Assembly (NCBI GenBank): GCA_947568835.1
Contig: OX387608.1
Location: forward strand, 1,774,001-1,838,000
Direction of reading: 5' to 3'
Origin: Protonemura montana
Lineage: Eukaryota > Arthropoda > Insecta > Plecoptera > Nemouridae
DNA: 64,000 nt
Positions within the stretch are counted from its first letter, which is position 1. Each line of letters begins with the position of its first letter. The notes under the pieces are model-generated. The model saw only the letters and a program-made list of their open reading frames with translations, searched no databases and was not told the DNA's origin. Below are positions 31,740 through 62,256 of this stretch, in pieces. The position numbers and the translations under genes are program-made.

Positions 31740-32984
31740 TTTGAAGGTTTATTTGTTTCAATAACTAGTTATTATTGAAATAAACGCAGGCAAAACACGA
31801 TCAGACAGCCACGCAATGGCCGCCGATCAATGAAGGCTGATGGTATGGGCTAAATGACAAGAATGTGTACCAAAGTTGTGCTGCCCTCTAGACGCAATGT
31901 TCAAACTAACACACCGTTCATGGATAAAATTGCGGTGAAAATGAAAAGTCGATTGTTTCGGTGTAAAAATATCGTTTGGTCTATCAAAAGCCTGACGAAG
32001 TTCAGATGAATTTACTAGCATATCGTTAAAATCACTTAAATAGATCTAAATGATCCACGCAAATTATTTTGGGTGTTCTTGAGGTCAGTTCGTGACCTTT
32101 TAATAATTTTTTTGGCAAAAGGTACACAATTTGTCTGTTCGATTTTGGTGTCATATGGCTGTAAGTATTTAATAGTGTCATTGCCCTTGCACATAAAGCT
32201 TATATCGACTTGACTTTGAGTGAATTTGGGATATTTTTACTGGTCCTATTGATGTGTTTTCTATTTATTAGCTCTTGTAAAGATTTCTACAATCTGCAAA
32301 TGTGTACTTAGGTCACGAACGTAACTTTATTACCGGTTGTGAACTTGTAAATATTTATAAATTTGTATTGACATATCTTTGGTTTAAGTACATCACAATA
32401 TACTTGGCTTTATATTGATTTTATTGACGTGTGAGCGAACACATTAGTACTTTTAAAGGTGTTTGAAACACGAAATGATATTTGTCTTTGATATCCCTAC
32501 CTATAGTCCTTACCCTATCTATAGTCTTTGATAGGGACTATAGGTTTTTAATTTCACCGCGCTTTTATTCATTTAATCCACTTTAGTTTGCTCTTTACGG
32601 TACAGAGGGCAGAACAATCGAGAGTACATATTCTTTACAAAACCGTCGAAAGACCACTTGAGGAATGTGTACCAACTTTAGAACAAGTAGATTGGCAACA
32701 TGTTGTACAAGTGGCGCGTCAAAGTCAGTATTACAAAACATTAGGTTTTGTTTTAATTTATTTTTACATTCATTATCATATAACATTATCATATTTGAAG
32801 GTTCGATTGTCATATTTAGTTGATTTATTCATAAAAAATTCACACTCAAGTCGTCATATATCAATAATCAGGGCAAACGACTAGTTGTCATAGTAACAAG
32901 GCAATTGTTTACATGCTGTCACTGGCAAAGTTGTGACAAAAAGAGGTAGGTAATTCACTAACTCGTACGCCAAATCAACTCAAA
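31740..32984. promoter_or_regulatory. Divergent intergenic region GTPBP4-RIBC2
   Basis: The two start codons point away from each other across about 1.2 kb, so promoters for both should lie here. AT-rich; no TATA box, repeat or further exon that I can support. Confidence 0.4.
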
Positions 32985-39500: not shown

Positions 39501-42500
39501 GAGGAAAAGATTGACAATGTCAAATATGATGGAGAAAAAATGTGGAGGACACTTAAAAAAATAGTACAAACACATAATACTGAAAAAAATAAAAATGAAA
39601 TAATAAACTCGGACCAAAAAATGTTAAATAATGACCTAGAAATAGCAGATCATTTTAACAAATATTTTATTGATAGCATAAATGATATCCTAAAAACTAT
39701 TGAGATCGAAGTAGAAAATAATAACGTAGAAAACAACATAGGAAAACTCAACCTGGACAACATTCAGAAATATGAAAGAGAAAAAGACTGCAAATTTATA
39801 GAGTTCAACAAGATCTCGATTGGAGAAATGGATAAAGTAATTAGGGAACTAAGAAATAAAAAGGGTGATATGGATGGTATATCTGTGAAACTGTTCAAAG
39901 ACTCGTACCCTGTTATAAAATACTACCTATTAGACCTAATAAATGCCTCGCTTCAGAGTGGAATTTTTCCCTCAAAACTTAAAATATCTCAAATAATACC
40001 AGTACCTAAAGTTCGGGGTTCAATAAAAATAAATGAATATAGACCAATAAATATGCTTTCAGTGATGGACAAAATCATAGAAAAATTAGTATATCAACAA
40101 CTTACAAGCTATCTAGAAACAAATAATTTACTATACGAAAATCAATCGGGCTTTAGAAATGGTTTCTCATGTGAAACTGCGATTCAAAATTTAATATCAA
40201 ATTTCTACAGTGAGAAAGAAAAAGGAACTAAAATAATAGCCGTTTTTCTTGACCTAAAAAGAGCTTTCGAGACAATAAACAGAGAAAGACTACTTCTCAA
40301 ACTACAAACTATGTATGGCATCACTGAAAAAGCTCTTGCATGGATAAATGACTACCTCACAAATAGATTTCAAAGAGTGAAGTACGGAAAAGAACAATCG
40401 GACCTCATAGAATGCACCCAAGGAGTACCTCAAGGATCTATTTTGGGCCCCCTTCTCTTTATACTCTATATTAATGACGCGTATAAGTGTTTATCATATA
40501 GTCAGCTAAATATGTATGCCGACGACATGGTAATATGGACGAGTGGGCGAAATATTGACGATGTCGCAGACAAACTAAATTATGATGTAAATATAATGTC
40601 CAAATGGCTAAATGTAAATAAACTTAAACTAAACGAAACCAAGTCCAAAATAATGTATGTAAACAAAGGTGTATCACAAGAAAGTCACCAGAAAAATAAA
40701 ATAGTCATAAAGGGGACTGATATTGAAACTGTTAGTGAAATCAAGTACCTAGGAGTGATTATAGATAATAAATTAAATTTCAAGGACCATATAAAATCAG
40801 TAACAAATAAAATCGATAAAAAATTAGGATACTTGTACAGAGTAAGCAGACAACTTTCAATGTGGACAAAATCAATCATCTTCAATACCATCATTAAACC
40901 ACATTTTAAATACTGTAGCACAATACTAGCAATAGCAAACGAAAATGAATGTAAGAAACTACAAAAACTCCAAAACAGGGCAGCTAGAATAATATTAAAA
41001 GAAAGTTGGCTCTCTGACCAAAGAGAAATGCTAAATAAACTTCAATGGAAAAATGTTAAAGAAAATTTTGAAATAGATGTATGTACTTTTATATTTAAGA
41101 TCCTACATGGTCAAATGCCTATGTACTTAGAAAATAGACTAAATATTAAAGATCATGAACATAATACTAGATCAGAAAGAAATTCGTATGTAGAAGGCAA
41201 GTCTAATAATAGTATATTTTATAGAGGAGTAAGAAAATATTATGCACTTCCTGCAAACATCAAAGGCGAGGAAGATTTTGTTAAGTTTAGTAAAAAATTA
41301 GAAAGTTTTGTTAGTATCTAAGTAAAACTTTAAGCTAAGAAATTACAAAAATGTAAAATGTACTGTAAATAGCATTTTTTTGCTAAATAAACAACTTCAA
41401 ACAAACAAATGTTCATGCCCTATCTGCTATGTCCCAGCGCTGTATCAACGGTAGCCTATGTTTAAATCTGAGTACCAACAACCAACTGACCAATCGACTT
41501 CAGTCGACCAAGAAGAATAATGCCAGCTTTTAACTTACGCCCAAATATATTTATTTTCATATTCGGAATGCTGTCAAACTGGTTGGTAACTATTGATAAC
41601 ATAGCAACAAGTTTTCTTTCATCTACCAGGGAAAACTTGTAGCTATTTTATTTTTAGGAACACTAATAACCTCTCAAAAATTGATGCCCAAACGGGGACC
41701 GGACCTCCACCTGTTGCGGGTGTTGCTCTAACCAATTGAGCTATTTGGACATCCGGCATTTGTTGACAGGGTTTTAGTGCATTTGATGAGAATGACGGAT
41801 CACCAAGGAGTAGAACCACGAGTGTTCCTAATAATAAAATACCCCGTGCAATTAAAATCAGATTCCAAACGTTGCTTCTTGACGTCGACAGCGCTGGGCG
41901 ACAAGGTGCTGGTTTGCTACGTCTCGTCGTGGGCCCGTTATCGTCACGGGAACGGCTCGTTCCAGATCGACGACGTGAACCCGAAGCTTTGTACGCATCT
42001 CGTGTACGCGTTTGCTGGTCTCAACACAACGACCTTTGCGCTGCGCAGTCTTGACCCTTTCAACGACCTTGAAGAAGACTACGGCAGAGGTAAGTCCACG
42101 TCGAGCCAATCTTTGCCACTTTCTAATTCTGTACCTCGTACCGATAGGGCGACGGCCGCTAAATAAAATTTCTTCCATGTGATGGATCAAAACCACCTTA
42201 ATTTAGAGCTAAATTCTTATTTTTTTGTATTTATGTAAACATCTTCCGGTGAAATCAGCCTTCATGACCATAGTTGGGGAAAATCGTTTTAAAAACGATC
42301 TTTTAAAAAGATCGAAAATCGCGATCGTTTTTTATAAATTTAAATTCGTTTCAAGAAAAGATTGAGTTCATTTAAAAGATCGTTTTCTAAAAAAAATCAT
42401 GTGATCATTGGAAAAAAAACATAATTTTTAGCACCTTTAGGTGCTGGGAAATTTAATATTAATATAGAAATAGTAGGAACACAATGGGACGAGGACTATG

Positions 42501-45500
42501 ACTTATTGTCAAGAATACAAGAAGATAATTAACAGTCTGTTAACACTTAACAGTCTGTTAACACTTAACAAGAACAATGATGCCTTGCAATTTGAAACAC
42601 GTTAAACACAATCTTTTCAAAAGGATCGTGGAAAATCCGAGCGCGATCGAATAAAAAGATTGTGGAATACAAAAAAGATGGCAATCAGTTCAAAGATCAC
42701 GATCCCGTTTTTTTTAAAAGATCTTTTTCTAATTATGATCATGCCAGTGAACGTACCTAAATGTTTGTAAAGCTTAAAGTAGAGACATTGTTAAGTTAGC
42801 TTCGAGCTTCTCTCAAAGCTAGCCATTCCAAGTCTAGATCACTTCAACACTTCACGTGTTAACTCCGCCTCCCTCGGCAGGTTCCTACAAGCGTCTGACT
42901 GCATTCCGCAGAGATTACCCGGCGGTGAAGGTCACGCTGGCCGTGGGAGGTTGGAACGAAGGTTCAGCCAACTACTCTCGGATGGCGTCAAGTGCGGCCA
43001 ATCGGCAGCGCTTCGTCGACAGCGCCGTGGACTTCGTGAGGTGCGTTCGGTGGTCGCCCATCCAATACCTGACCCAGCACAGTGTTGCTTAAGTTTCATC
43101 CCTACCTCTCTCCCAAACAGAACTGGTCATGTGTTAGATGGTCACCCACACAATACCTGATCCAGCGCAGTGTTGCTTAACTTAGATCCCTCTCACCACT
43201 CTCCCAAACAGAACTGGTCATGTGTATGATGGTCACCCATCCAATACCTGACCCAGCACAGTGTTGCTTAACTTTGGTGATCTGACGAGGATCACTATGC
43301 TGTGGAGGCCGTACCTATTTGTACTTTGCAAGATAAAGATTGCAAAAATAAAAACTATATCCTCAACACTTGTATTGAACTTGGAATGTTCCAGACGGTT
43401 CAACTTCGATGGCCTGGACCTCGACTGGGAGTTCCCGGGGAAGAGGGACGGGAAGCCGGAAGACAAGGACAACTTCCTGTCGCTGGTCAAGGTAAGGAGG
43501 ACGTCAGGACGTGTCTGCAGGGTTCTGGTCGTGAGAAGAAGATCGACACAATGTCTTGCAGCCTGGGAGCTTCAATTACTGGAGGAGTGATAATAAGAAT
43601 CATATACAACCAAACCTAAAAGGGAGGAGGAAATACCCGATTCCGGTAGAACTGCAGAACTCATCCATCCAATACCTGACCAATTTCACAGTTTTTACAA
43701 AACACGTTTTCAACCAATTTTGACCATAAAAGTGGTGAAAAAAACGAAAACTGCCAACGTAAACACTTTAAATAGCTCGGGCTCTTTGAGAGAACTCTAA
43801 ATCAGGGACTCTCAAGATGGCGGCCTTGGCTTCAGAGTCTCTCCATGACACCAACTATCCAGGTGGAAATAAGTTTTCCCACTTTTCAAATCGCTGTGTA
43901 ATTTATTGGGATATATATGTTCAACTACAGATCATCAGTGGGAAGTATATATGTTCAACTACAGAGCATCAGTGGGAAGTATATATGTTCAACTACAGAG
44001 CATCAGTGGGAAGTATATATGTTCAACTACAGAGCATCAGTGGGAAGTATATATGTTCAACTACAGAGCATCAGTGGGAAGTATATATGTTCAACTACAG
44101 AGTATCAGTGGGAAGTATATATGTTCAACTACAGAGCATCAGTGGGAAGTATATATGTTCAACTACAGAGCATAAGTGGGAAGTATATATGTTCAACTAC
44201 AGAACATCAGTGGGTGATCTATCAATGATATTTTTCTAAAATACTGACTCTGTGTGCTCCGCTTTCAGGAGCTTCGCGCAGCTTTTGCTCCGCATGGCTG
44301 GCTCCTCACAGCCGCGTTGGGGGCGGGGCCAGATAAAATCGAGGCCGCGTATCACGTGGCGGCGTTGTCGGAGCATCTCGACTTCCTCCACGCGATGTGC
44401 TACGACTACCACGGAGCTTGGGACAAGTACACGGGATCCAACACGCCGCTGAAGAAGCAGGACGACAAGTTCTCCGTGGTGAGCGGTCGGTGGAATTACA
44501 GCGAACAGAACGGAGGATTGATCATTGATGGGTTTTCATCATGTGTTTTTTTTGTTGGCAATCTAGCGTCCAAAGGCCAGCTTTGATTTGAACGAAAATT
44601 TCCGACCACATTTCTGTATTCTTAACTTAGACCCCCTGCGATTTTCAGCAAAATTGGTCTGACAGCTTAGTAACTATTCAAAATTACAAAAAAATATTGA
44701 GATTTTCATGAGCTTTTTGGTGTTTTACCACCAAGTTTTGCTTCTATTTTCTTTACCAAACTTTGCAGAGATGTGAAATACACCTAATATTAAGAAGCCT
44801 CATCATTGTTGAGCCCGTATATGTTTTCCGACCATTTCACGATGTCTATTTCTATCTCACGATGACCAGTCTCCGCGGCCAGCTAGCTCCTCCCACCACA
44901 AGCTTGTGTTTTGTTTTGCAGGAAGACAGCATCGAGTTACTTCTGTCGCTCGGAGCAGCTCCCGAGAAACTCGTGCTCGGCTTGGCGATGTACGGCCGAT
45001 CTTTCATAACCACGGCACCTGCGACCTCGGCGCTGAGAGCTAAAGCCAGCGCCGTCGGGTTCAAGGGACCTTACACCGGCGAGGACGGATTTCTGGGATA
45101 CAACGAGGTAGGCTCGGTGACAAGGCTGGATATCAGTTCAGACGCTGTAGTCGAGCAATATCAAAGCATCGTCAGATAAGAAATTTTGCTTTTTCGGCGG
45201 TAAAACAAGTTGAAAATATGACCAAATCTGTCCAATAATGTAACGAACGTGTGGTAAAAAACAAGGACAAAAAAATATCATCGGAAAACCCCTAAAAAAT
45301 TAGGGATTCTAAATTTTTACTAAAAAATAAATTAACTTTAGAGCTTCAGTAGCACCATGGTAGCACCGCCAAATGACCGCTCTAGGTCGAGGCCCGCGTC
45401 CAGTTGTTAGGTTATGTTTCTCTGCTCCAGATCTGTCTCGAGCTGGGCAAGCTGGATGCCGAGGGCAATCAGGTCTGGCTCCAGCTCTGGGACAACGAGA

Positions 45501-46642: not shown

Positions 46643-48679
46643 CACCGAGATCCCGGCTCAAGTGCAGTTCATGATAGACACAAATGTTATTCAGAGTTTG
46701 TAGGTTAGGTCAGAGTCACAGCGCTAATGTTAAACTTGCTGCCGAGCAAACGAGGCCTCTTGACAGTCTCAATCTCAACGGTATAACCTACAAATACGAT
46801 TGTTTTTTAAAGTCTATAGCTAGGGCTTTTTTAAGTTCGTTATGCTTAATAGATTCATTGTTCAATTATTTTCGAAGCTCAATGCCAATAAGCTGACGCA
46901 TCGTTAAACCGAAATAATCACAACTAATTATTAAACAACACCGACAAAGTAAACAAATCCGAATCAACGGGGAATCCCACGAATAATTCTGTGTCGAGAT
47001 CTCTAAATGGCTGGGTCTCGGCGATCGAGATTGCGCTCGATCGTCATCTGCGGTTCACTGTCTCAGAATCGCACGACAACTATTGGTCGATAACCTTGCT
47101 AGTTCTCGATCTCTAGCTAGATGTCGACATCGACAAACAATCCTAGAATCGCCGAGCTGCTGTGAATGGCATGTAATGTTTCTTTATTACATGTATATAT
47201 CTGCATCATGTCTACAGACATCTATTAATAAGATATCGCAAGGTACTTGTTCCAACTTCTTCTGAAACTTTTAAGAATTTTAAATGTACACTGGATATTT
47301 TTAGATAAAACACTTTGTTACTGATATTTTTACCTGTTTTTATTATACGTGATTTTACTGTGGTTTTTATACGAGTGGATAGAGAAATAAAAAGATAATG
47401 CGGAGGTTGTTGAATTGCTTATTGTTGGTGTTTGTCCCTTCCTACGGTTGACGCTGAGGTAAAGATTGGACCTGAGTTGGAGATAAAGTTTTTACAACTT
47501 TTCGGTATTTTTACAAAATTGGCCTCGCACGAGATTCTATCTCGTATCTTCAGTGAATTACAGTCGGATTAAACTGCCAAAATCTCCAAACAGACAAACA
47601 ATAGAAGGTTTCTGATCAAATCTTATTTCACTGGGTTTAATTCAGTGTCAAACCCAGAACAACAATCATGTATGCAGATTGTTTGAGTCGAGTTGGGTAA
47701 ATATTGGAATAACAGGCTAAGATTTCTATTTTGCCCTTTGCTTTTGGCATCATTAGGTGGGTTTTTGAGGTATTTATGTACTAAGTTAAAACTGTAAACT
47801 TTCCAATGTTTTAGTTCCAATTCAATTAAAAATTAGAACCTCTATTTTGTTTCTTTCTCATATTTTCCGCACTAGACCTGACATGTTTTTATCAACTGTC
47901 AAATATCTCGACAAAAGATGACAGGTAAGGAAACAAACAAATTAATATATGCAAATTAATCGGGTTTTAGGAATGGGGTCTCGTGTGAAACTGCTATCCT
48001 AAACTTAATGTCCAATTTCTACAGCGAGAAAGAATAAAGGGAACACAACAAAAGCTGTTTTTCTAGACTTAAAGAGAGCTTTTAAAAAACTCAGCACTCG
48101 GATTGGAGAACTTGCATCAAGGGTTAGTAGTTTTTGCAAGGACACGTTGCACAAGTTTTATCAGGGTTCTGAGGAAACAACGGTAACTTTGATTAGTCAG
48201 ATAACATATTTCATTGTTTGCTTTCCGAACAATCTTTGGGACATCAAGCATCACTTGCGTTTAGGAAGCTTGAACTTGGTAATTTTGATAAAATTATGTG
48301 GTTCTTTTGTTAACGGAAAATTGTCAGAACTGCTCTTACCGTTGAAGAAGTAACTAGTACATCTTACAAAACGTCAAGTAATTAAGATGTCCTTTACTTA
48401 GCATTTAAAACACATTTCAAAAAGTTATTATTAATCTTTGGGTCATTCCTTGCTGGACAAAAGATAAAGTTGACTGAAGTGACAATGTCAACGAACCAAC
48501 AATTAAGCTTTTCAATGGGATATCAAGAATATAAAAGTAGCAAAAGAAACAATTAAATTCATGAATTTTAACAATAACTAAACAACGTTGTTGCCACGAT
48601 AACTAATTTCTTCTACTTGAACAGTTTTGCTGATAGTGATCACTTCACGCTAAGTAAAAAAGTTCGTAATTCTGTTAAA
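46643..48679. other. Spacer between the chitinase and the exon-cassette gene
   Basis: Chitinase 3' UTR, a LINE fragment at 47950-48090 and the presumed promoter of the next gene. No other exon seen. Confidence 0.45.
47950..48090 (+). mobile_element. Short fragment of a LINE related to 37142-41400
   Basis: About 140 bp aligning with the RT stretch that encodes [13 protein letters not shown] and FLDLKRAF in the LINE at 40140-40265, but with a stop after FYSEKE. Both ends truncated. Confidence 0.8.
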
Positions 48680-51600
48680 ATGTCAGTCTCGAAGAATGAC
48701 ATGGATATCAATGGTGTTTCTGGGGGTATGTACTTTCAAATACAAAAAAATTTCATAAAAATTCCATAGAAAAATAACTACTCATTAGCTTTGTTAATCA
48801 TCAGAGATTTCAACTTCGATACTGTCTCGCTGAGCATCGGGCAGTAAGAGTAATCTACAGTAACAGTAACCTTTGTAATTGGAACACTTTGTATAGAAGC
48901 CCCAGTATTCATTCCCAAAACAATCTGCTTCTATTTGTAGCTCAGGAAATTGCCATCCAACGTCACTTTAAATAAAAATAACAAAATGTCTCACATAAAA
49001 TTGCGTCAGTACACCCACTGTGGTCTCAATGATCAAATAAGCAGCCTAAAACTCAGAAAGTTTATTTTAAAAAGAACACTTCCAAAACATTTGAGACTAG
49101 TAGCGCGATACAGATCAGTAATGAATGTTATGTTTTCAGATGGCCCAGACGAGGAGCACGTGGACTCCGACGGCTTTGCCTCTGATTTTGTAGGTCGAGA
49201 CAAGATAAGAGCTCTCATGGGTAAGTTTAACTCAAAAACTTTCACTCGAAGAAAGCAAAAACTCTTTGAAAGAGACATTAAGCCGATGGTCCTCTAGGTG
49301 CTCTTCAACAATAGTACACTGTTTGTCGGCCCCAGGATTTTGTAGCTTCACTTCAAGACTTGGTTAGGTCTAAAATCATCCTCATAGCAAGGGCTTTGCA
49401 AATGCAAATAGAGTTGTTAAGAAAGATAAGTGTAGCGATATTTTGTGATAATTAAATGTAAAGCCAAACATGAGGTACACGCGTCCATATTTCTATCTTT
49501 TCTGTCAGTGTAATTTTCCTTGAAACTTGTAGGTAGTGTAACATGTTGCCGGGGAAATCGTATTTGCAAATTAGCTTTGCTTACTACGCTCATCGTTGTC
49601 CCACTCAATAAAATTTGCCAGAAGATTATTCTTACAGCACCCAAAGTCAAACAGTGCACTGTTAAACATTGCAATTTATTCCATCGATCCTGCTTCCCTG
49701 ACGTTTATTTTGATGTGTTTTTATCTTGGAGATATCAATGCCTATTATTATTATAACCAATGGTTGTATGAAGTAAAGCTGGAAATAATTGCTGTTCAGG
49801 TTTTTTTTTATTACCTGCATCACTCATATTTACAGAACGGTGTATTTTCGATACATTCTTAACAACTTGACTGGGTGATGATTGGAATAATTTTACCTTG
49901 TACTTATTGCACGATCTCAGAGTTTGGTTCTTCAGATGAGATGAACACTGAAGTTGCTGGTTAATATTACCGTAGTCTACAATAAGGTAACACTTTGTCC
50001 TGATTCTAGAAATGGAGCCCAACTTACAGCTGTCAGGGGACATCAATGATGTTGCGGAGATGTGCCTGAGAAATTTCTTCGAGTACAATGGTCCTGCGAA
50101 TGCTGGAGAGGATATCCAGCAAAAACCTTGTGGGAGTGGTGAGTGAATTCCATTCATTTCATGAGCTCAGTTAAATGCCCACTGAACATATCCACCCCTT
50201 AGAGCTCTTTTCGTTGGAAAATAAGCCTCAATAGAAACTTCCTAGTTGTATTTCAATCAGTCATTATATCAGCCGTTTATAGTTTAGCCTTCGGTCAAGA
50301 CCATTCAGAGGGTCGCGAAAGTCACCACACAGAATTCTGTTTGTGTCTTTGATGGTAGCAGAGACCGTAACCTAGTAACCTGGTTACGTTTGGACAAGAA
50401 CCTAGACGTGGTTCTTTTTTTCTCGGAAAATTGACAGGACTGCTTAAACTAGGAGAAGGAAACGTGGTTGCAACTTCTGGTAACATAAAGATGACAGTTA
50501 CGATAGCATCCCCTCTTTCATTGCCAGAGTCCAAACCTGACTTTGATTCTATCACTGATTGTGTCGGGGATACCCCAACGCCTCTCAGTAACACAGGCAT
50601 CACTTTCAGTCAGTGAATCAAACCGGTTCTTGTAGCTTTTTAGTTTATTGACTTGACATTTGGTTGACATGTGATGTAAACGTGTGGAGCTAAAATACCA
50701 GGTTCCAATCAGGTAACAATTTGTCTTTATCGCAGACAACGAAACATCCGGCGACACGGTGCTTCCTGCTGAGGAGTCAATCTGTGACATCGTGGAAGAC
50801 AGAGATCTGCCGGTAGATTTGGACACATTGGATCAAGAAGCTCAAACAAGCAGTGAGTGATTTGCAAAACTTTCAATACCCCTTGTGTCATTGAAAAGGA
50901 AGTTACTTATGGACAGTTATCAGCTGATTTTTATCAGTCATTACATCTGTTTCCTTTCATTCCGATATAAATGCAAATCCGCATTACGCGATGGGGAATA
51001 AGGTCGCCTTATTGCTTTTGAAATGCTACCTTTATGATTGAGGAGGTCTGTAGTGGAGGAATGTTTTTCCATTGTTTGCAGAATAACTTGTGATATTGCT
51101 ATATCGTTGAAGGTTTCGAACGGTGTTTTTTGAAGTATGGTCTAGTCGATACTTTTAGGCAGGCAATTGTGGACATTTAGGGTGTTTCAAAGAACAGAGT
51201 AAATTATGTGGTGGTGATGTAAAGGAGCAGGAAAATGGTATTTTAAAAACTTAAACAGTTCCTGGCATTTGTCAGAAATTAAGAAATTAGTAATTTCGTA
51301 CTTGGGTTATGGAAAAAGATTTTTTTTTTTTGGTGGTTTAATTTTTTGGTAAAATTTGGCCATTTTTTAAACTCGGGCCGAAAACCCAAACTCTTTTCAA
51401 CTGCAAAACTCCACAACCAAAAAGAAAGTCGACAATGGTGTCTGCTTGTGTCTTAAGGTTGTTAAACTAACCAAGAACAACAAACAACTGAACAATTTTT
51501 TTCAGCTGCACAGGCGGAAAAATATGCACAGGAATTGGCACTCCTCGATGATTTAGGACGTGAAGCCTACAGCCGATGTGTAGCAAAAAAGTTTTCGGAA

Positions 51601-54600
51601 GTCTTTGCTGGTGAGTAAAAAAATCAGAGGGAGGTAGAATGGTGCATCAGTCAATTTGTGGTTGACACAGCTCTTGTCATTGGTCACTGGTTTAATATTG
51701 TATATTCCTGAACTGATTGTAATTATTAGAAGAAGTTGTGTCAACGCTTTGTGAAAACATAAAAACATAAACTGTCCCTACTGTAGGACTTTGCAACTCA
51801 AACAAATGTTAGTTTAGATAACAGAAAGACAATTTAGAGAAAACTTTTTTTTTAATCTAAAACGTTTGAGACTGGTAGCACGAAACCGATCAGTAATGAA
51901 TGTTACGTTTTCAGATGTCCCTGACAATGACAACAAAGACTCGGACTTCTGCGACTCCGACGTCGTGGGTGGGGACATGTTAAAAGCTCTCATGGGTGAG
52001 TTTAACTCAAAAACTTAGACTCGAAAAAAGCAGAAACTTTTCGTGTTCCACCTTAAGATGAGGATACATCCTTTGGTCCATGCTTCTTCACTGGCCTTGC
52101 TAATCAACCTCTCGACAGCATGGATTTGTGATGGAATCCTGTTGTTCGCGTTGTACCGTCCTTCAGAAGGGACATTAAGCCGATGGTCCTCTAGGTGCTC
52201 TTCAACAATAGTACACTGCTTGTCGGCACCAGGTTTTTGTAACCTCACTTCAAGACTTGGTTAGGTCTAAAATCATCCTCATAGCAAGGGCTTTGCAAAT
52301 GCAAATAGAGTTGTTTAGAAAGATGAGTGTAGTGATATTTTGTGATGATACAATGTAAAACATGAGGTACACGTGTGCCTATTTCGATCTTTACTGTTCG
52401 TTAAATTTTCGTTGAAACTTGTAGCTAGTGTTACATGTTGTCGTGGAAATCGTATTTGCAAATAAGAGCGAACTACGCTCATCGTCGTCCCACTCATTAA
52501 TATTTGCCAGAAGACTATTCTTACAGCACCCGAAGTCAAGCAGTGCACTGTTAAACATTGCAATTTATTCCATCAATCCTGCTCATCATATCAGCCGTTT
52601 TACAGTTAAGTTGGTCAAGACCATTCAGAGGGTCGCGAAAGTCACCACACAGAATTCTGTTTGTGTCTTTAATGGTAGCAGAGACCGTTACCTAGTAACC
52701 TGGTTACGTTTGGACAAGAACCTAGACCAAGCATCCCAAATGATTTTAACTGAAATCAAAATGCATATAGGATGCTTGAATGAGGTAGTTGGTAAAAGTT
52801 TGTGTGGTTCTTTAATAATAATAATATGTTTTGATTGTCATATGGGATCAAATTACAGTTGATATATAGACAGTCATTTGATCTAAAAATTAGACACAAG
52901 GTAGAGCGTTTCTTTGAAAATGTACATTCACATAAATTGTCATAGGTTAAATACAATACAGACTAATACTATAATGACTAAAACTAATGACTAAATTATA
53001 TATTATCACAAAACTCGTAGACACTATAAAAACATTCCACAAGTTAATAAGATTTGAGAGTGGATTTGAACTTATCTTTTTTGCAGTCTTTTATATTCTT
53101 TGGTAAAGTGTGGTAAAGTTTTATTCCAGAATTTATCGGATTTTTTTTTTTTGAGATGGATTTAGAGTATCTTTTGGACTCAGTAATATAGTGTCGCCTA
53201 TCATGCGCATGTTTTTGTTGTTGTGTCCATGATGTGATTATTTTCTACCGCGAATATGATGCAATTGTATATATAGAGACAAGGTAGTGTCCTGGAGCTG
53301 AAATCGACGAAACAGTGTTTTACATGAATCTTTCATGAATGTGACAGCTGTCGGGTTGTAGCTTGTCTTAGCCATAAATCGAATTGATTTTTTTTGTAAG
53401 GTGAATATCTGGGCTGCATTTTTGGATCTTCCCCAGAATAGTATCCCATATTGGAGTCTGGATTGTATGTATGCATAATAGACTAGTTTTGCAGTTTGCA
53501 CGTTTGTCACATTTACAATTCTCTTAATGAGATAGAATCCCCCTGACACTTTGATGCATGTGTTTTGAATATGTGCTGTCCAGTTTAATTTGTTATCTAC
53601 AATAATGCCCATAAATTTCGTTTCATTCGTCCCAGTGATAGTTTTGTTGTCTAATTTGATTAGAGAGCTGCTTTCAACTTTGGTAAATTTGTGGTAATTT
53701 GCATGAAAACAGTTTTAGTTTTATTTATTGTAAGGTGGTTATTTGAGCACCAAGTATGCATTTGGTAGGCTGCTTCATTGGCTCTGACACCCAAGCTTTC
53801 ATTATCGTAGTCTATAATTAAATGTGTAGGTAGTGTCATATGCGCAGAGCGTGAGTTCACCTGTATTTACCTCTATAGGCAGGTCATATGTAAAAAGGGT
53901 AAAAAGCAGCGGAGCGATTATTGACCCCTGGGGCAGTCCAACATTAATTGTTGATTCCTTTGACCTAATTTCGTTCGTCTCTGTTCTAATATATACGGTT
54001 TGCTTGTGATCTTTTAAGTAGGATCTAATCCACTCGTTTGCTACACCAGATATACCAATTTGCTTCATTTTTATCAGCAATGACTTGTGGTCAACAGAAT
54101 CAAACGCTCTGCTAAAGTCGTAAAATATCCCCAATACGTTTTTTTTTTATCAATAGCGTCTATGGTTTCTGTGATGAAGTTGGCTATGGCAGTAGTAGAA
54201 GATCTTTTTTTAGTGATTTAGTTGATTTAGTGAGATCTTTCTCTCTTTTTCTCGGAAAATTGATAGGACTGCTAAATCTAGGAAAAGGAAACGTGTTTGC
54301 AACTTCTGGTAACATAAAGATGACAGTAACGATAGAATCCCCTCGTTTATTGCCAGAGTCCAAACCTGACTTTGATTTTATCACTGATTGTGTCGGGGAT
54401 ACCCGAACGCCTCTCAGTAACACAGGCATCAATTCCAGTCAGTGAATCAAACCGGTTCTTGTAGCTTTTTAGTTTATTGACTTGACATTTGGTTCACATG
54501 CGATGTAAACGTGTGGAGCTTAAATACCAGGTTCTAACTCATTAGCATTTGACAAAGTCAGAAACCATTTGCATGCCACCCCAAGATAAGGATTTCTCCT

Positions 54601-57600
54601 CTTGTTTGTTATTATTTACTCGCCTTGCTTTGCAACTTCTCAACAGCATGGATTTGTTGACGAATCCTGTTATTTGCATTGTACCATCCTATAGAAGGGA
54701 CAATAAAGCCCGGGAAATCCCAGGTTCGTATCCCGGTTCGGTTGCAAATTTTTTCAGTCTAGCTTCCTTTCCAAAGCGGTAATTGTCTATGTGCACATTG
54801 ACATGAGTAAGATTAGTGTATAAAGATTATCTAGGTTTATCTAGTTTTACCCTGCTTAAAATGTATCCTTATTTTGAGAATAGCCCACTCATACACACCA
54901 GTTTGTGTACACTTAATTCTTGATGACTGGACACCGTCATGTTTTAAATAAGCTATCCTTGTAAATATTGAACAATCTCGGAGTGTAATTCCTGGGATGA
55001 GAATCTGTCCACAATCAGGTAACAATTTGTCTTTATCGCAGACAACGAAAAATCTGGCGACACGGTGCTTCGTGCTAAAAAGTCAATCTGTGACATCGTG
55101 GAAGTTAACGATCTGCAGCTAGAATTGGAATTGGCTCAAACAAGCAGTAAGTGATTTGCATAACTTTCAATACCCCTTGTGTCGTTGAAAAGGAAGTTAC
55201 TTATGGACAGTTATCAGCTGATTTTTATCAGTCATTACATCTGTTTCCTTTCATTCCGATATAAATGCAAATCCGCATTACGCGATGGGGAATAAGGTCG
55301 CCTTATTGCTTTTGAAATGCTACCTTTATGATTGAGGAGGTCTGTAGTGGAGGAATGTTTTTCCATTGTTTGCAGAATAACTTGTGATATTGCTATATCA
55401 TTGAAGGTTTCGAACGGTGTTTTTTGAAGTATGGTCTAGTCGATACTTTTAGGCAGGCAATTGTGGACATTTAGGGTGTTTCAAAGAACAGAGTAAAAAC
55501 ATTGCTTATGTGGTGGTGATGTAAAGGAGCAGGAAAATGGTATTTTAAAAACTTAAACAGTTCCTGGCATTTGTCAGAAATTAAGAAATTAGTAATTTCG
55601 TACTTGGGTTATGGAAAAAGATTTTTTTTTTTGGGTGGTTTAATTTTTTGGTAAAATTTGGCCATTTTTTAAACTCGGGCCGAAAACCCAAACGCCTTTC
55701 AACTGCAAAACTCCACAACCAAAAAGAAAGTCGACAATGGTGTCTGCTTGTGTCTTAAGGTTGTTAAACTAACCAAGAACAACAAACAACTGAACAATTT
55801 TTTTCAGCTGCACAGGCGGAAAAATATGCACAGGAATTGGCACTCCTCGATGATTTAGGACGTGAAGCCTACAGCCGATGTGTAGCAAAAAAGTTTTCGG
55901 AAGTCTTTGCTGGTGAGTAAAAAAATCAGAGGGAGGTAGAATGGTGCATCAGTCAATTTGTGGTTGACACAGCTCTTGTCATTGGTCACTGGTTTAATAT
56001 TGTATATTCCTGAACTGATTGTGATTATTAGAAGAAGTTGTGTCAACGCTTTGTGATAACATAAAAACATTAACTGTCCCTACTGTAGGACTTTGCAACT
56101 CAAACAAATGTTAGTTTAGATAACAGAAAGACAATTTAGAGAAAACTTTTTTTTTATCAAAGACATTTGTGACTGGTAGCACGAAACCGATCAGTAATGA
56201 ATGTTACGTTTTCAGATGTCCCAGACAATGACAACAAAGACTCGGACTTCTGCGACTCCGACGTCGTGGGTGGGGACATGTTAAAAGCTCTCATGGGTGA
56301 GTTTAACTCAAAAACTTAGACTCGAAAAAAGCAGAAACTTTTCGTGTTCCACCTTAAGATGAGGATACATCCTTTGGTCCATGCTTCTTCACTGGCCTTG
56401 CTAATCAACCTCTCGACAGCATGGATTTGTGATGGAATCCTGTTGTTCGCGTTGTACCGTCCTTCAGAAGGGACATTAAGCCGATGGTCCTCTAGGTGCT
56501 CTTCAACAATAGTACACTGCTTGTCGGCACCAGGTTTTTGTAACCTCACTTCAAGACTTGGTTAGGTCTAAAATCATCCTCATAGCAAGGGCTTTGCAAA
56601 TGCAAATAGAGTTGTTTAGAAAGATGAGTGTAGTGATATTTTGTGATGATACAATGTAAAACATGAGGTACACGTGTGCCTATTTCGATCTTTACTGTTC
56701 GTTAAATTTTCGTTGAAACTTGTAGCTAGTGTTACATGTTGTCGTGGAAATCGTATTTGCAAATAAGAGCGAACTACGCTCATCGTCGTCCCACTCATTA
56801 ATATTTGCCAGAAGACTATTCTTACAGCACCCGAAGTCAAGCAGTGCACTGTTAAACATTGCAATTTATTCCATCAATCCTGCTCATCATATCAGCCGTT
56901 TTACAGTTAAGTTGGTCAAGACCATTCAGAGGGTCGCGAAAGTCACCACACAGAATTCTGTTTGTGTCTTTAATGGTAGCAGAGACCGTTACCTAGTAAC
57001 CTGGTTACGTTTGGACAAGAACCTAGACCAAGCATCCCAAATGATTTTAACTGAAATCAAAATGCATATAGGATGCTTGAATGAGGTAGTTGGTAAAAGT
57101 TTGTGTGGTTCTTTAATAATAATAATATGTTTTGATTGTCATATGGGATCAAATTACAGTTGATATATAGACAGTCATTTGATCTAAAAATTAGACACAA
57201 GGTAGAGCGTTTCTTTGAAAATGTACATTCACATAAATTGTCATAGGTTAAATACAATACAGACTAATACTATAATGACTAAAACTAATGACTAAATTAT
57301 ATATTATCACAAAACTCGTAGACACTATAAAAACATTCCACAAGTTAATAAGATTTGAGAGTGGATTTGAACTTATCTTTTTTGCAGTCTTTTATATTCT
57401 TTGGTAAAGTGTGGTAAAGTTTTATTCCAGAATTTATCGGATTTTTTTTTTTTGAGATGGATTTAGAGTATCTTTTGGACTCAGTAATATAGTGTCGCCT
57501 ATCATGCGCATGTTTTTGTTGTTGTGTCCATGATGTGATTATTTTCTACCGCGAATATGATGCAATTGTATATATAGAGACAAGGTAGTGTCCTGGAGCT

Positions 57601-60600
57601 GAAATCGACGAAACAGTGTTTTACATGAATCTTTCATGAATGTGACAGCTGTCGGGTTGTAGCTTGTCTTAGCCATAAATCGAATTGATTTTTTTTGTAA
57701 GGTGAATATCTGGGCTGCATTTTTGGATCTTCCCCAGAATAGTATCCCATATTGGAGTCTGGATTGTATGTATGCATAATAGACTAGTTTTGCAGTTTGC
57801 ACGTTTGTCACATTTACAATTCTCTTAATGAGATAGAATCCCCCTGACACTTTGATGCATGTGTTTTGAATATGTGCTGTCCAGTTTAATTTGTTATCTA
57901 CAATAATGCCCATAAATTTCGTTTCATTCGTCCCAGTGATAGTTTTGTTGTCTAATTTGATTAGAGAGCTGCTTTCAACTTTGGTAAATTTGTGGTAATT
58001 TGCATGAAAACAGTTTTAGTTTTATTTATTGTAAGGTGGTTATTTGAGCACCAAGTATGCATTTGGTAGGCTGCTTCATTGGCTCTGACACCCAAGCTTT
58101 CATTATCGTAGTCTATAATTAAATGTGTAGGTAGTGTCATATGCGCAGAGCGTGAGTTCACCTGTATTTACCTCTATAGGCAGGTCATATGTAAAAAGGG
58201 TAAAAAGCAGCGGAGCGATTATTGACCCCTGGGGCAGTCCAACATTAATTGTTGATTCCTTTGACCTAATTTCGTTCGTCTCTGTTCTAATATATACGGT
58301 TTGCTTGTGATCTTTTAAGTAGGATCTAATCCACTCGTTTGCTACACCAGATATACCAATTTGCTTCATTTTTATCAGCAATGACTTGTGGTCAACAGAA
58401 TCAAACGCTCTGCTAAAGTCGTAAAATATCCCCAATACGTTTTTTTTTTATCAATAGCGTCTATGGTTTCTGTGATGAAGTTGGCTATGGCAGTAGTAGA
58501 AGATCTTTTTTTAGTGATTTAGTTGATTTAGTGAGATCTTTCTCTCTTTTTCTCGGAAAATTGATAGGACTGCTAAATCTAGGAAAAGGAAACGTGTTTG
58601 CAACTTCTGGTAACATAAAGATGACAGTAACGATAGAATCCCCTCGTTTATTGCCAGAGTCCAAACCTGACTTTGATTTTATCACTGATTGTGTCGGGGA
58701 TACCCGAACGCCTCTCAGTAACACAGGCATCAATTCCAGTCAGTGAATCAAACCGGTTCTTGTAGCTTTTTAGTTTATTGACTTGACATTTGGTTCACAT
58801 GCGATGTAAACGTGTGGAGCTTAAATACCAGGTTCTAACTCATTAGCATTTGACAAAGTCAGAAACCATTTGCATGCCACCCCAAGATAAGGATTTCTCC
58901 TCTTGTTTGTTATTATTTACTCGCCTTGCTTTGCAACTTCTCAACAGCATGGATTTGTTGACGAATCCTGTTATTTGCATTGTACCATCCTATAGAAGGG
59001 ACAATAAAGCCCGGGAAATCCCAGGTTCGTATCCCGGTTCGGTTGCAAATTTTTTCAGTCTAGCTTCCTTTCCAAAGCGGTAATTGTCTATGTGCACATT
59101 GACATGAGTAAGATTAGTGTATAAAGATTATCTAGGTTTATCTAGTTTTACCCTGCTTAAAATGTATCCTTATTTTGAGAATAGCCCACTCATACACACC
59201 AGTTTGTGTACACTTAATTCTTGATGACTGGACACCGTCATGTTTTAAATAAGCTATCCTTGTAAATATTGAACAATCTCGGAGTGTAATTCCTGGGATG
59301 AGAATCTGTCCACAATCAGGTAACAATTTGTCTTTATCGCAGACAACGAAAAATCTGGCGACACGGTGCTTCGTGCTAAAAAGTCAATCTGTGACATCGT
59401 GGAAGTTAACGATCTGCAGCTAGAATTGGAATTGGCTCAAACAAGCAGTAAGTGATTTGCATAACTTTCAATACCCCTTGTGTCGTTGAAAAGGAAGTTA
59501 CTTATGGACAGTTATCAGCTGATTTTTATCAGTCATTACATCTGTTTCCTTTCATTCCGATATAAATGCAAATCCGCATTACGCGATGGGGAATAAGGTC
59601 GCCTTATTGCTTTTGAAATGCTACCTTTATGATTGAGGAGGTCTGTAGTGGAGGAATGTTTTTCCATTGTTTGCAGAATAACTTGTGATATTGCTATATC
59701 ATTGAAGGTTTCGAACGGTGTTTTTTGAAGTATGGTCTAGTCGATACTTTTAGGCAGGCAATTGTGGACATTTAGGGTGTTTCAAAGAACAGAGTAAAAA
59801 CATTGCTTATGTGGTGGTGATGTAAAGGAGCAGGAAAATGGTATTTTAAAAACTTAAACAGTTCCTGGCATTTGTCAGAAATTAAGAAATTAGTAATTTC
59901 GTACTTGGGTTATGGAAAAAGATTTTTTTTTTTGGGTGGTTTAATTTTTTGGTAAAATTTGGCCATTTTTTAAACTCGGGCCGAAAACCCAAACGCCTTT
60001 CAACTGCAAAACTCCACAACCAAAAAGAAAGTCGACAATGGTGTCTGCTTGTGTCTTAAGGTTGTTAAACTAACCAAGAACAACAAACAACTGAACAATT
60101 TTTTTCAGCTGCACAGGCGGAAAAATATGCACAGGAATTGGCACTCCTCGATGATTTAGGACGTGAAGCCTACAGCCGATGTGTAGCAAAAAAGTTTTCG
60201 GAAGTCTTTGCTGGTGAGTAAAAAAATCAGAGGGAGGTAGAATGGTGCATCAGTCAATTTGTGGTTGACACAGCTCTTGTCATTGGTCACTGGTTTAATA
60301 TTGTATATTCCTGAACTGATTGTGATTATTAGAAGAAGTTGTGTCAACGCTTTGTGATAACATAAAAACATTAACTGTCCCTACTGTAGGACTTTGCAAC
60401 TCAAACAAATGCTAGTTTAGATAACAGAAAGACAATTTAAAGAAAACTTTTTTTTTATCAAAGACATTTGTGACTGGTAGCACGAAACCGATCAGTAATG
60501 AATGTTACGTTTTCAGATGTCCCAGACAATGACAACAAAGACTCGGACTTCTGCGGCTCCCACGTTGTGGGTGACGACAAGTTAAGAGCTCTCATGGGTG

Positions 60601-61391
60601 AGTCTTACTTAACATTTTTGACTCGTAGAAAGCAGAAACTCTTTGTGTTCCACCTTAAGATGAGGATTCATCCTTTGGTGCATTCTTCTTCACTCACCTT
60701 GCCTATCAACCTCTTGACAGCATGGATTTGTGATGGAATCCTGTTGTTACAGTGTTGTTCCAATGAACCAGTAGGCGGATTGATTGCTTCACTGTTAAGT
60801 TTTCTGGTACCACAGCTAAATGTGAACACAAGTTGAAATATATTAAGGAGCTTGACGTTCAGACAGGATCTAGTTGATTATTGAGTCAGAGCGGCAAAAC
60901 ATCGGAAGTAGGTATGAATGCAATGCGTGAAAATCTGTAAATTGACAAACCCAGACAAGTAACTCAAAATAACACGCGTCACCGGGGCAGTGAAAGTTGT
61001 TGCTTTTTATAATTGACTTTTATTTCATGACCTGACCAAGCTTTGGTACGGATCACAGAGTTTAGTTCGACTGTCGCATGGCACAAATTTCAAAGCTAAT
61101 GGATGAAAAAATCAGACGCTTGTAGTGGCACTGGACGTGGCTTTTCTCACCCATTCTGTTTTTCTAATGACAGGTCTGGAGAGTGACGTCAATGAACACA
61201 CCCAAGAACTCCAAAAGACAGGTCAACAGGTGATGAGCCTAGAAGTTACTCAGGTTGAAAATGAAATCAATCTTATTGAGGAAAGTGGAAATCAAGCTCG
61301 AAAGAAAAAGGGATGCACATTTGGTAGATGGGTCGTTAAAAATCTACGCAGATGTATATTTTGCGGGGGAAAGAAAAACAACGCAGCCTAA
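48680..61391 (+). CDS. Unrecognised 13-exon gene built from repeated phase-1 exon cassettes
   Basis: Predicted exons: 48680-48725 (start MSVSKNDMD), alpha0 49140-49220, delta 50010-50138, beta1 50736-50852, gamma1 51506-51610, alpha1 51915-51995, beta2 55042-55146, gamma2 55808-55912, alpha2 56216-56296, beta3 59343-59447, gamma3 60109-60213, alpha3 60517-60597, last 61174-61391. Every internal exon is phase 1 at both ends, with good AG and GT sites, and the whole chain is open: 452 aa. Alpha (27 aa) is acidic (DNDNKDSDFCDSD) and ends KALMG or RALMG. Beta (35-39 aa) has SGDTVL and SICDIVE. Gamma (35 aa) is probably helical (AEKYAQELALLDDLGREAY). The last exon ends basic and Cys-rich (GCTFGRWVVKNLRRCIFCGG). 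No signal peptide or known domain. I do not recognise the family. Exon 1 and delta are the least certain. Confidence 0.7.
52105..52200 (+). repeat. Short copy of the CCGTCCTTC hairpin repeat
   Basis: GCATGGATTTGTGATGGAAT then CCTGTTGTTCGCG and the hairpin, related to 20380-20605 and 25848-26060. Recurs in unit C at 56406-56500 and as a stump at about 60718-60748. A more diverged copy lies at about 54640-54710 and 58941-59011. Confidence 0.7.
52735..54235 (-). mobile_element. Degenerate non-LTR retrotransposon fragment in unit B
   Basis: Minus-strand RT pieces in broken frames: 53802-54134 (FYDFSRAFDSVDH, GLPQGSIIAPLLF), 53660-53860, and 53238-53612 (IIVDNKLNWTAHI). The active-site box is degenerate (CAYDTTY). 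It is absent from unit A, where the flanks join at about 50395-50415, so it inserted before B and C separated. Different family from the LINE at 37142. Confidence 0.88.
57036..58536 (-). mobile_element. Degenerate non-LTR retrotransposon fragment in unit C
   Basis: Copy of 52735-54235 at an offset of 4301 bp, with the same frame breaks and degenerate active site. It was duplicated with the cassette rather than inserted independently. Confidence 0.88.
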
Positions 61392-61767
61392 AAACCACGT
61401 CTTGGGTTAGGAGACCGAAACACACAACGCTAAAGCTGACTAAAATTACACTACTATCTTCCAAATTTCAACCTATATATCACTAATAAAATAGAAATAG
61501 ATCAATAACTGTTATTATTCAAGTATCACATCTTCCAAATTTCAACTGTCACTTTTAAAATAGCAAATTATCAGTAACCTCCATTATTAAACCCCCAAAC
61601 CCACACAAAGTCTTAAGAAAGGAGATTCTAGCTACACAGTCACTCACACGTGGGACATTTCACTTCAAACCAGAATATTCCTAGAACAAATTTTGACCTT
61701 TACTTTCTGATCATTTTCAAAATTCCAAGTTGGGTTTTTACCTATGTCGTCACATGTGCATAAGAGA
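61392..61767. other. 3' flank of the exon-cassette gene
   Basis: AATAAA at 61485-61490, 94 bp after the stop, is a good polyadenylation signal for the cassette gene. Nothing else recognisable. Confidence 0.6.
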
Positions 61768-62256
61768 TGCACAGTTTGGCAATGCGTTAAGTTGACAGTT
61801 CTTAAGAGCAATTGCCACCGTGTAGGCGTATTACTACGCTCTATGTCCAAATAATTAGCTAAAACTTTTAGGATGGCATGCTCTTGTTTTTATAAGTATT
61901 TTTTTGTTTTATATTGTATTTTTTGCAGTCAACAAGTTTTTAATTTTCAAGTTTTTAGTTTTAAAGTTTTGTAGTTTTTAGTTTAGTAGTTTTAAAGTTT
62001 TGTAGTTTTTAGTTTTGTAGTTTTAAAGTTTTGTAGTTTTTAAGTTTTGTAGGTTTTTAGTTTTTTCAGTTTTTAGTTCTTCAAGTTTTTAGTTCTGAAG
62101 TTTTAGTTATTCGGAGAAGTAGTACTCATACTTACTAGAGCATGTGTTTCTGAGAGTTGTAGTTAATTATTTGAACATAGAGCGTAGTGATGCACTTGCA
62201 CGGTGGCAATTGCAATAAAGAACTGTCAACTTAACGCATTGCAAAACTGTGTTAAA
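61768..62256. mobile_element. Foldback MITE with about 95-bp inverted arms
   Basis: The left arm (61768-61866: CACAGTTTGGCAATGCGTTA ... CTACGCTCTATGTCC) is the near-perfect reverse complement of the right arm (62155-62254). The loop (about 61870-62150) is low-complexity TTTTAGTTTTGTAG repeats. No coding capacity. Confidence 0.82.

What the first reader, a model, noticed from the sequence alone, without database searches (positions are those of the whole stretch)
48680..61391. An undescribed modular gene grown by exon-cassette duplication
Thirteen exons chain into one 452-aa frame, all phase 1/phase 1, which is the symmetry that lets exons be copied without a frameshift. One alpha exon comes before three beta-gamma-alpha cassettes, and a unique basic Cys-rich exon ends the protein. 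The exons stay open and spliceable although the introns carry dead LINEs, which argues for coding constraint. I recognise no domain. It looks like a lineage-restricted repeat protein caught while lengthening.
Basis: partly seen in the sequence, partly recalled or inferred. Interest (0 to 1): 0.9.

Follow-up and report, generated by a model that had tools for sequence, protein, structure and literature searches.

The report
Exon-cassette gene family that changes length
A real-looking invertebrate gene, one of three intact-looking relatives in its genome, is built from small interchangeable exons whose number changes by recombination between similar cassettes; its job is unknown, and similar gene growth has been described in other organisms.

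Summary
The 13-exon, 452-aa model at 48680-61391 is exact: 12 of 12 introns are GT-AG and phase 1, with no stop. It is not alone. The genome holds two more intact-looking genes (C11, 421 aa, inverted 12.7 kb away; C12, 427 aa), a C2 copy with a stop in exon 1, and fragments. Both sisters read E1-A-U-BGA-BGA-BA-T; this gene reads BGA-BGA-BGA. Its cassettes 2 and 3 are identical over 4,188 bp, cassette 1 joins that near-identity just 3' of its beta exon, and its last alpha is a mosaic. So cassettes are gained, lost and homogenised; the third could still be an assembly error. Coding is supported (no stops; 2 of 2 exon length differences in threes; tail dN/dS 0.36), moderately. Beta exons exceed introns in comparisons with the C12 gene but not with the C11 gene; intron homogenisation may explain part. 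No homologue was found, but a control found only one, so lineage restriction is untestable. An X-box-like site 77 bp before the ATG is a weak lead. No transcript data.

The parts
48590..48603 (+). X-box-like (RFX-type) site GTTGCCACGATAAC, one mismatch to GTTRCCNNRGYAAC, 77-90 bp 5' of the ATG
   Evidence: 11 matches at 6 sites in the window, 1.22 matches expected; identical in P39, P40 and both C2 arms. The motif consensus is recalled
48680..48725 (+). Exon 1 (E1), ATG start, MSVSKNDMDINGVSG, ends phase 1
   Evidence: identical peptide in P39, 2 replacements in P40
49140..49220 (+). Exon 2, first alpha (A0)
50010..50138 (+). Exon 3, single-copy U exon
   Evidence: U-like exons also at C11:914k and C2:7.702/7.709 Mb
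50736..50852 (+). Exon 4, beta 1 (Ba)
51506..51610 (+). Exon 5, gamma 1 (Ga), identical to gamma 2 and 3
51915..51995 (+). Exon 6, alpha (Aa); the exact 4,301-bp-period identity starts inside it at 51923, after a longer near-identical stretch that begins near 50.93 kb
51923..60411 (.). Exact tandem array of period 4301 bp (51923-56110 = 56224-60411, 4,188 bp without a mismatch)
53238..53714 (-). LINE reverse-transcriptase remnant inside the Aa-Bb intron (identical second copy 57539-58015)
55042..55146 (+). Exon 7, beta 2 (Bb), 12 nt shorter than beta 1, in frame
55808..55912 (+). Exon 8, gamma 2 (Gb)
56216..56296 (+). Exon 9, alpha (Ab)
59343..59447 (+). Exon 10, beta 3 (Bc), identical to Bb
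60109..60213 (+). Exon 11, gamma 3 (Gc), identical to Gb
60517..60597 (+). Exon 12, last alpha (Ac), 7 of 81 differences from Ab; mosaic: left part as Ab, right part as the sister genes' later alphas
61174..61391 (+). Exon 13, terminal exon (T) with basic tail KKKGCTFGRWVVKNLRRCIFCGGKKNNAA, stop
61485..61490 (+). AATAAA, 94 nt after the stop codon, possible poly(A) signal

Best explanation
A genuine protein-coding gene, one of a small family in an invertebrate genome. Its middle is an array of symmetric phase-1 exon cassettes that gain, lose and homogenise copies by unequal recombination or conversion between cassettes; one junction lies inside the last alpha exon, the other just 3' of the first beta exon. 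A leader (E1, A0, U) and a basic Cys-containing tail (T) frame an acidic cassette region (pI of the whole 4.26). SHOWN: exon chain, sister genes, cassette-number differences, exact and near-exact repeats, mosaic alpha, a constrained tail. INFERRED: that the protein is made; that it is intracellular (hydropathy shows no signal peptide or membrane span); that the repeated acidic modules act as a variable multivalent binding region anchored through the basic tail.
For: Exon chain and splice sites; same exons, frame and splice sites in P39 and P40. The two exon length differences among the three intact genes are multiples of three (12 and 6 nt), against 1 of 19 (W-P40) and 2 of 20 (P39-P40) intron indels. 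dN/dS 0.49, 0.70 and 0.58. Leader+tail in P39-P40: replacement below silent (p 0.017) and below intron rate (p 0.027). Terminal exon against the C2 copy: dN/dS 0.36, p 0.013. Cassette change: exact 4,188-bp repeat with period equal to the alpha-to-alpha distance; W cassette 1 against 2 differ by 7 of 653 in the beta-gamma intron and 0 of 105 in gamma, while W and P39 cassette 1 differ by 47 of 653 and 9 of 105; mosaic last alpha.
Against: No transcript or protein evidence. Replacement versus silent contrast is weak for the whole gene (p 0.05, 0.13, 0.02 for W-P39, W-P40, P39-P40). Leader+tail in W-P39 shows few changes of either kind (replacement 3.0/367.8, silent 1.0/94.2, p 1), with an intron only 0.7% different beside the tail, so that comparison shows recent sharing, not constraint; in W-P40 the contrasts are not significant (p 0.26 against silent, 0.10 against introns). 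Silent sites in cassette exons exceed introns. The C2 copy has a stop in E1. Structure prediction of the tail was uninformative (pLDDT 55). The molecular role is a guess.
Confidence: 0.7

Rival explanations
1. The locus and its sisters are recent pseudogenes: copies of a once-coding gene that have not had time to break.
For: The family leaves many relics: six beta-bearing sites on C11 without E1 or T among the listed places, a C2 copy with a stop in E1, a U exon on C2 cut off before its end. The C11 fragments also still have open exons. Overall dN/dS is only moderately below 1.
Against: Chance of no stop 0.016-0.13; 2 of 2 exon length differences in threes; tail dN/dS 0.36 against C2; leader+tail constrained in P39-P40; splice dinucleotides kept at every intron of the three genes.
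Confidence: 0.15
2. The third cassette is an assembly error: one 4.3-kb unit written twice.
For: 4,188 bp without one mismatch, in a family where sister introns differ by 3.6-6%; both sister genes lack the extra unit.
Against: The last alpha and its 5' flank differ from Ab at several sites and carry a mosaic, which a simple duplication error would not create, though it could sit beside one. Cassette 1 is also close to cassette 2 outside beta (7 of 653, 0 of 105, 7 of 303), so real homogenisation goes on here.
Confidence: 0.2
3. The exon-over-intron divergence reflects gene conversion (introns homogenised, exon patches exchanged) or mutation bias in GC-richer exons rather than selection for diversity.
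For: Silent sites of cassette exons exceed introns too (p 0.0007, 0.006, 0.0006). Within this gene the beta-gamma intron and gamma are homogenised while beta 1 and 2 keep 16 of 105 differences. Exons 47% GC, introns 37%. In W-P39 beta exons are not fast (replacement 2.0/168.1). Gamma variability does not exceed the intron significantly (p 0.34).
Against: Beta excess persists without CpG sites (21 of 99 against 66 of 629, no test made). Four fragments show no beta excess (5 of 117 against 30 of 657), although the gene-versus-fragment difference is not significant (p 0.12, 0.46).
Confidence: 0.5
4. The gene is cargo or a component of a mobile element.
For: Pieces are dispersed on three contigs (C2, C11, C12); repeats of at least 2.9 kb at C11:15.92 Mb and C2:7.69 and 10.87 Mb (94-97% alike) carry about 170 bp of the promoter and exon 1.
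Against: Those repeats share only that piece with this gene in the stretch compared; no transposase or reverse-transcriptase family matched the protein; the intron LINE piece lies on the other strand. Whether the three intact copies sit in a common element was not tested.
Confidence: 0.07

Closest known systems
[quoted passage not shown] passages including part of the abstract seen)
   Same: Arrays of small exons separated by introns of one single phase; exon number differs between close paralogues; unequal crossing over between exons proposed; LINE-like elements adjacent.
   Different: Theirs are exactly 90 bp, phase 2, with leucine-rich repeats, and species have more than a thousand LRR genes; here 81/105/117 bp in a three-exon cassette, phase 1, no LRR match, three intact-looking genes.
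Aphid bicycle genes (PMC9168663; passages seen)
   Same: Rapidly evolving genes of many small internal exons almost all starting at codon position 2, as here.
   Different: Salivary-gland effector candidates with about 17 exons on average; no cassette order in the passages read; this protein has no signal-peptide-like start by hydropathy.
Viperid three-finger toxin genes with accelerated segment switch in exons (PMC2474615; passages including part of the abstract seen)
   Same: Segments of exons change faster than the introns between them; here only in part of the comparisons.
   Different: Venom proteins; change is switching within exons, not cassette number; no relationship implied.
Schistosome micro-exon genes (search listing only; details recalled)
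   Same: Genes of small symmetric exons, fast evolving.
   Different: Shorter exons and secreted products (recalled); no sequence comparison was made.

Membership tests
Functional protein-coding gene family | Open reading frame with GT-AG introns | tested here: met
   3 of 3 intact-looking genes
Functional protein-coding gene family | Purifying selection somewhere in the protein | tested here: met
   Tail against C2 dN/dS 0.36, p 0.013; leader+tail in P39-P40 p 0.017; not significant in W-P39 (p 1) or W-P40 (p 0.26)
Functional protein-coding gene family | Spliced transcripts | not testable with these tools
   no RNA data held
Tetrahymena-type LRR exon-array genes | Leucine-rich repeats | tested here: not met
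   Pfam scan lists no LRR family
Tetrahymena-type LRR exon-array genes | Exactly 90-bp exons, phase-2 introns | tested here: not met
   internal exons 81-129 bp, phase 1
Tetrahymena-type LRR exon-array genes | Exon number differs between close paralogues, with signs of unequal exchange | tested here: met
Bicycle genes | Internal exons start at codon position 2 | tested here: met
   11 of 11
Bicycle genes | Signal peptide (recalled) | tested here: not met
   best 9-residue hydropathy mean among the first 30 residues -0.17; no dedicated predictor was available
Lineage-restricted (orphan) gene | No homologue outside the lineage | tested here: inconclusive
   0 hits, but the control RIB43A exon found 1 relative, so the database looks poor in eukaryotes
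RFX-regulated ciliary gene | X-box close to the start of the gene | tested here: inconclusive
   one-mismatch site 77 bp upstream of the ATG; motif picked by eye before testing
RFX-regulated ciliary gene | Expression in ciliated cells or sperm | not testable with these tools
   none

The most novel reading that the evidence does not exclude
A previously unknown protein family in which recombination between cassettes, with junctions at or inside coding exons, adds and deletes beta-gamma-alpha units and homogenises introns and gamma, while different beta exons are kept apart by diversifying selection: a repertoire-making gene, possibly RFX-driven and used in sperm or other ciliated cells. (Odds lowered from 0.15 to 0.12 after one search showed that alpha exons are not the only junction.)
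Probability: 0.12. Interest if true: 0.68.

Novelty: new member of a known kind. Interest (0 to 1): 0.42.

Why it matters
It is a clean snapshot of a gene changing length exon by exon: two sister genes keep one arrangement and the third differs by an exact cassette copy plus a missing unit, with a mosaic readable inside an exon. If expressed, it allows a direct test of how new repeat proteins grow without losing their frame, and of whether the variable beta exons are selected. If it is only a set of decaying copies, it is a caution that same-phase exons can stay open for some time by default.

Tried and rejected
Domain searches led nowhere: Pfam gave only sub-threshold matches (0 of 11 over cut-off) and PDB by sequence one match at E 1.6. 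Because the control found so little, absence of homologues is not counted as evidence of lineage restriction. Rfam found nothing in 46-64 kb, so the conserved beta-gamma intron is not a listed RNA. AlphaFold of the tail with 3 sequences: mean pLDDT 55, one long helix, not used and not searched against fold libraries.

Considered and rejected: that the pieces on C11 (330-914 kb) are further genes. They have no E1 or T among the places listed (such lists are lower bounds), and three stop at the same point in the alpha flank; three sites (337, 387 and 835 kb) do carry A0- and U-like exons. That the first-exon matches are all genes: four of nine match only 1-118 of the query; three of these four were fetched (L006-L008) and are repeats with the promoter piece; the fourth was not fetched.

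Limits of the statistics: Fisher tests treat sites as independent; the three pairwise comparisons share branches; 67 tests (54, 11, 2) were not corrected. Rows set aside: one search kept tblastn pieces of 20 bits or more on the plus strand of the chosen orientation. Searches left out W cassette 3 (its beta and gamma exons equal cassette 2). Searches cut P39_3, P40_3, F330 and F673 to the beta part because no gamma follows at the usual distance. One search left out Bc for comparisons with W, whose last beta has no positional counterpart.
Full report
WHAT IS THERE. Thirteen exons from 48680 to 61391 splice into a 452-aa frame; 12 of 12 introns are GT-AG and phase 1, and 11 of 11 internal exons are multiples of three. 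A possible poly(A) signal lies 94 nt past the stop. The protein is acidic (pI 4.26), with no hydrophobic start or membrane span by hydropathy, and a basic tail of 30 residues with charge about +10. Nothing in Pfam reaches its cut-off and nothing clearly similar is in the PDB by sequence (one match at E 1.6).

WHERE IT IS. The window lies at C11:1774001-1838000 of a 258-Mb, 34-contig genome. The COX1 gene on a 15,885-base contig reads best under the invertebrate mitochondrial code, with ATA falling on Met and AGA on Ser at positions where I recall those residues, so the host is probably a protostome. That placement is an inference, and the species is unknown.

SISTER GENES. Searches of the same genome (lists are lower bounds) find the terminal exon at five places: this gene, an inverted copy at C11:1848-1857 kb (P39, tail to tail, 12.7 kb apart), one on C12 (P40), one on C2, and a short C2 piece. 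P39 (421 aa) and P40 (427 aa) are complete and open with GT-AG introns of the same phase. The C2 copy is part of an inverted pair about 97% alike, with stops in E1, although its beta, gamma and terminal exons are open. Beta exons occur at 17 places (17 of 25 rows; the other eight match only upstream intron): three in each intact gene, two in C2 and six on C11 at 330-835 kb in pieces that show no E1 or T. Three C11 sites also carry A0- and U-like exons. U-like exons lie at C11:914 kb and on C2 at 7.702 and 7.709 Mb; the last is cut off inside the exon, the one before it keeps a GT donor.

HOW THE LENGTH CHANGES. P39 and P40 both read E1-A-U-BGA-BGA-BA-T; this gene reads E1-A-U-BGA-BGA-BGA-T. 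The shared arrangement is most likely the older one. Here 51923-56110 equals 56224-60411 without a mismatch over 4,188 bp, and the period of 4301 bp is the alpha-to-alpha distance. Near-identity reaches further left: from about 50.93 kb, just past the first beta exon, cassettes 1 and 2 differ by 7 of 653 in the beta-gamma intron, 0 of 105 in gamma and 7 of 303 in the gamma-alpha intron, while cassette 1 here and in P39 differ by 47 of 653 and 9 of 105 in the first two (8 of 303 in the third). On the right the identity fades in the last alpha, a mosaic whose left part follows Ab and whose right part and downstream flank follow the later alphas of P39. So unequal recombination or conversion has added or overwritten cassettes and a BA unit is gone. 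The exact copy is far younger than the split from P39 (introns 3.6% apart), or it is an assembly error; reads are needed to tell. 'Caught while lengthening' is fair for one step; the wider pattern is gain, loss and homogenisation. The LINE piece lies in an intron that aligns closely with P39 (2,766 aligned bases, 62 differences) and largely with P40 (2,562 aligned, 84 differences), and it was copied along with the cassette.

IS IT CODING? For: no stop among the substitutions separating three genes (neutral chance 0.016-0.13); the two exon length differences are multiples of three while only 1 of 19 and 2 of 20 intron indels are; dN/dS 0.49, 0.70 and 0.58; the terminal exon against C2 gives dN/dS 0.36 (p 0.013), and its extra stretches there keep the frame; leader plus tail in P39-P40 have fewer replacement than silent changes (p 0.017). 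Against: for the whole gene that contrast is marginal (p 0.05, 0.13, 0.02); for leader plus tail it is absent in W-P39 (p 1, both kinds rare; the intron beside the tail is 0.7% different) and not significant in W-P40 (p 0.26); fragments that look unable to make the protein also have open exons. Cassettes 2 and 3 carry no information. No RNA was available.

UNEVEN RATES. Exons as a whole differ as much as or more than introns: 3.8 vs 3.6%, 7.5 vs 6.0% and 7.1 vs 5.4% for W-P39, W-P40 and P39-P40. Beta exons are fast in the two comparisons with P40 (replacement 16.0 and 12.4%, p 7e-6 and 2e-5 against introns) but not in W-P39 (1.2%), where beta 1 and beta 2 keep their own sequence by position (4 of 117 and 1 of 105 differences). 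Across eight cassettes of the intact genes 30 of 117 beta sites vary against 26 of 165 in the near flanks (p 0.049); across six, 27 of 117 against 79 of 661 in the adjacent intron (p 0.003), and 46 of 117 against 138 of 662 with C2 added (p 5e-5); gamma shows no significant excess (p 0.34). Four fragments show 5 of 117 against 30 of 657; the gene-fragment contrast is not itself significant (p 0.12 and 0.46). Silent sites of cassette exons are also high, and introns and gamma are homogenised inside this gene while beta is not, so conversion may explain much of the pattern. Selection to keep beta exons different is possible, not shown.

FUNCTION. A guess must be labelled as one. The layout (leader, variable acidic repeats, constrained basic Cys-bearing tail) suits a multivalent binding protein whose reach is set by cassette number. 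One lead on where it acts: an RFX-type X-box with one mismatch lies 77-90 bp before the ATG, in the better-kept 60 columns of the promoter alignment (50 of 60 invariant in eight copies); it is identical in the five gene copies, and in the three repeat copies two bases differ, again one mismatch from the consensus. Another such site lies about 90-100 bp before the first Met of the open RIB43A frame. The motif was noticed by eye first, so its statistics are only indicative.

WHAT IS KNOWN. [quoted passage not shown] Bicycle genes share the exon phase and fast evolution (PMC9168663, passages), and exon segments outpacing introns are described for viperid toxins (PMC2474615, passages). No direct sequence comparison with those genes was made beyond the Pfam, PDB and protein searches above. 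Five literature searches listed nothing recognisable as this family; with the species unknown, that is a weak negative. Verdict: a real, probably coding, new example of a known way of building genes.

Noticed in passing
L006, L007, L008 (C11:15.92 Mb, C2:7.69 and 10.87 Mb): Repeats of at least 2.9 kb, 94-97% alike, each carry about 170 bp of this family's promoter and first exon (with a stop in the exon-1 frame), as if a mobile element had picked it up.
   Followed up: partly
L043 (C2:2083001-2088500): The C2 copy is an inverted pair with arms about 97% alike and an axis near 2085853 (worked out from places); the terminal exon sits at the axis. Real palindrome or assembly fold-back not decided.
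   Followed up: partly
window 32884-32897: X-box-like site 40 bp before an open RIB43A (ciliary doublet protein) frame at 32937; six such sites in the window, 11 matches against 1.22 expected.
   Followed up: no
window 37119-41321: LINE with an open 436-aa frame (weak PHD-like match) and an open 843-aa endonuclease/reverse-transcriptase frame, possibly young.
   Followed up: no
window 1322-2579 and 43790-44239: Reading frames made of the same short repeated peptide at two sites about 41 kb apart, on opposite strands; at 44002-44239 the DNA unit is 34 bp.
   Followed up: no
window 61770-61898 and 62123-62251: Inverted repeat with 129-nt arms, 82% complementary, just after the gene; could be a small inverted-repeat element.
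   Followed up: no
L071 (C4:5760925-5762262): A COX1 copy on C4 scores the same as the one on the 15.9-kb contig, with further pieces elsewhere on C4: a recent mitochondrial insertion or misassembly.
   Followed up: no
beta-gamma intron, window 55147-55807: 661 bp in cassette 2 of W, P39 and P40 without any length change, and about 12% different from C2 (cassette 1 intron) while silent sites of beta, gamma and terminal exons differ from C2 by about 30%; no Rfam match.
   Followed up: partly
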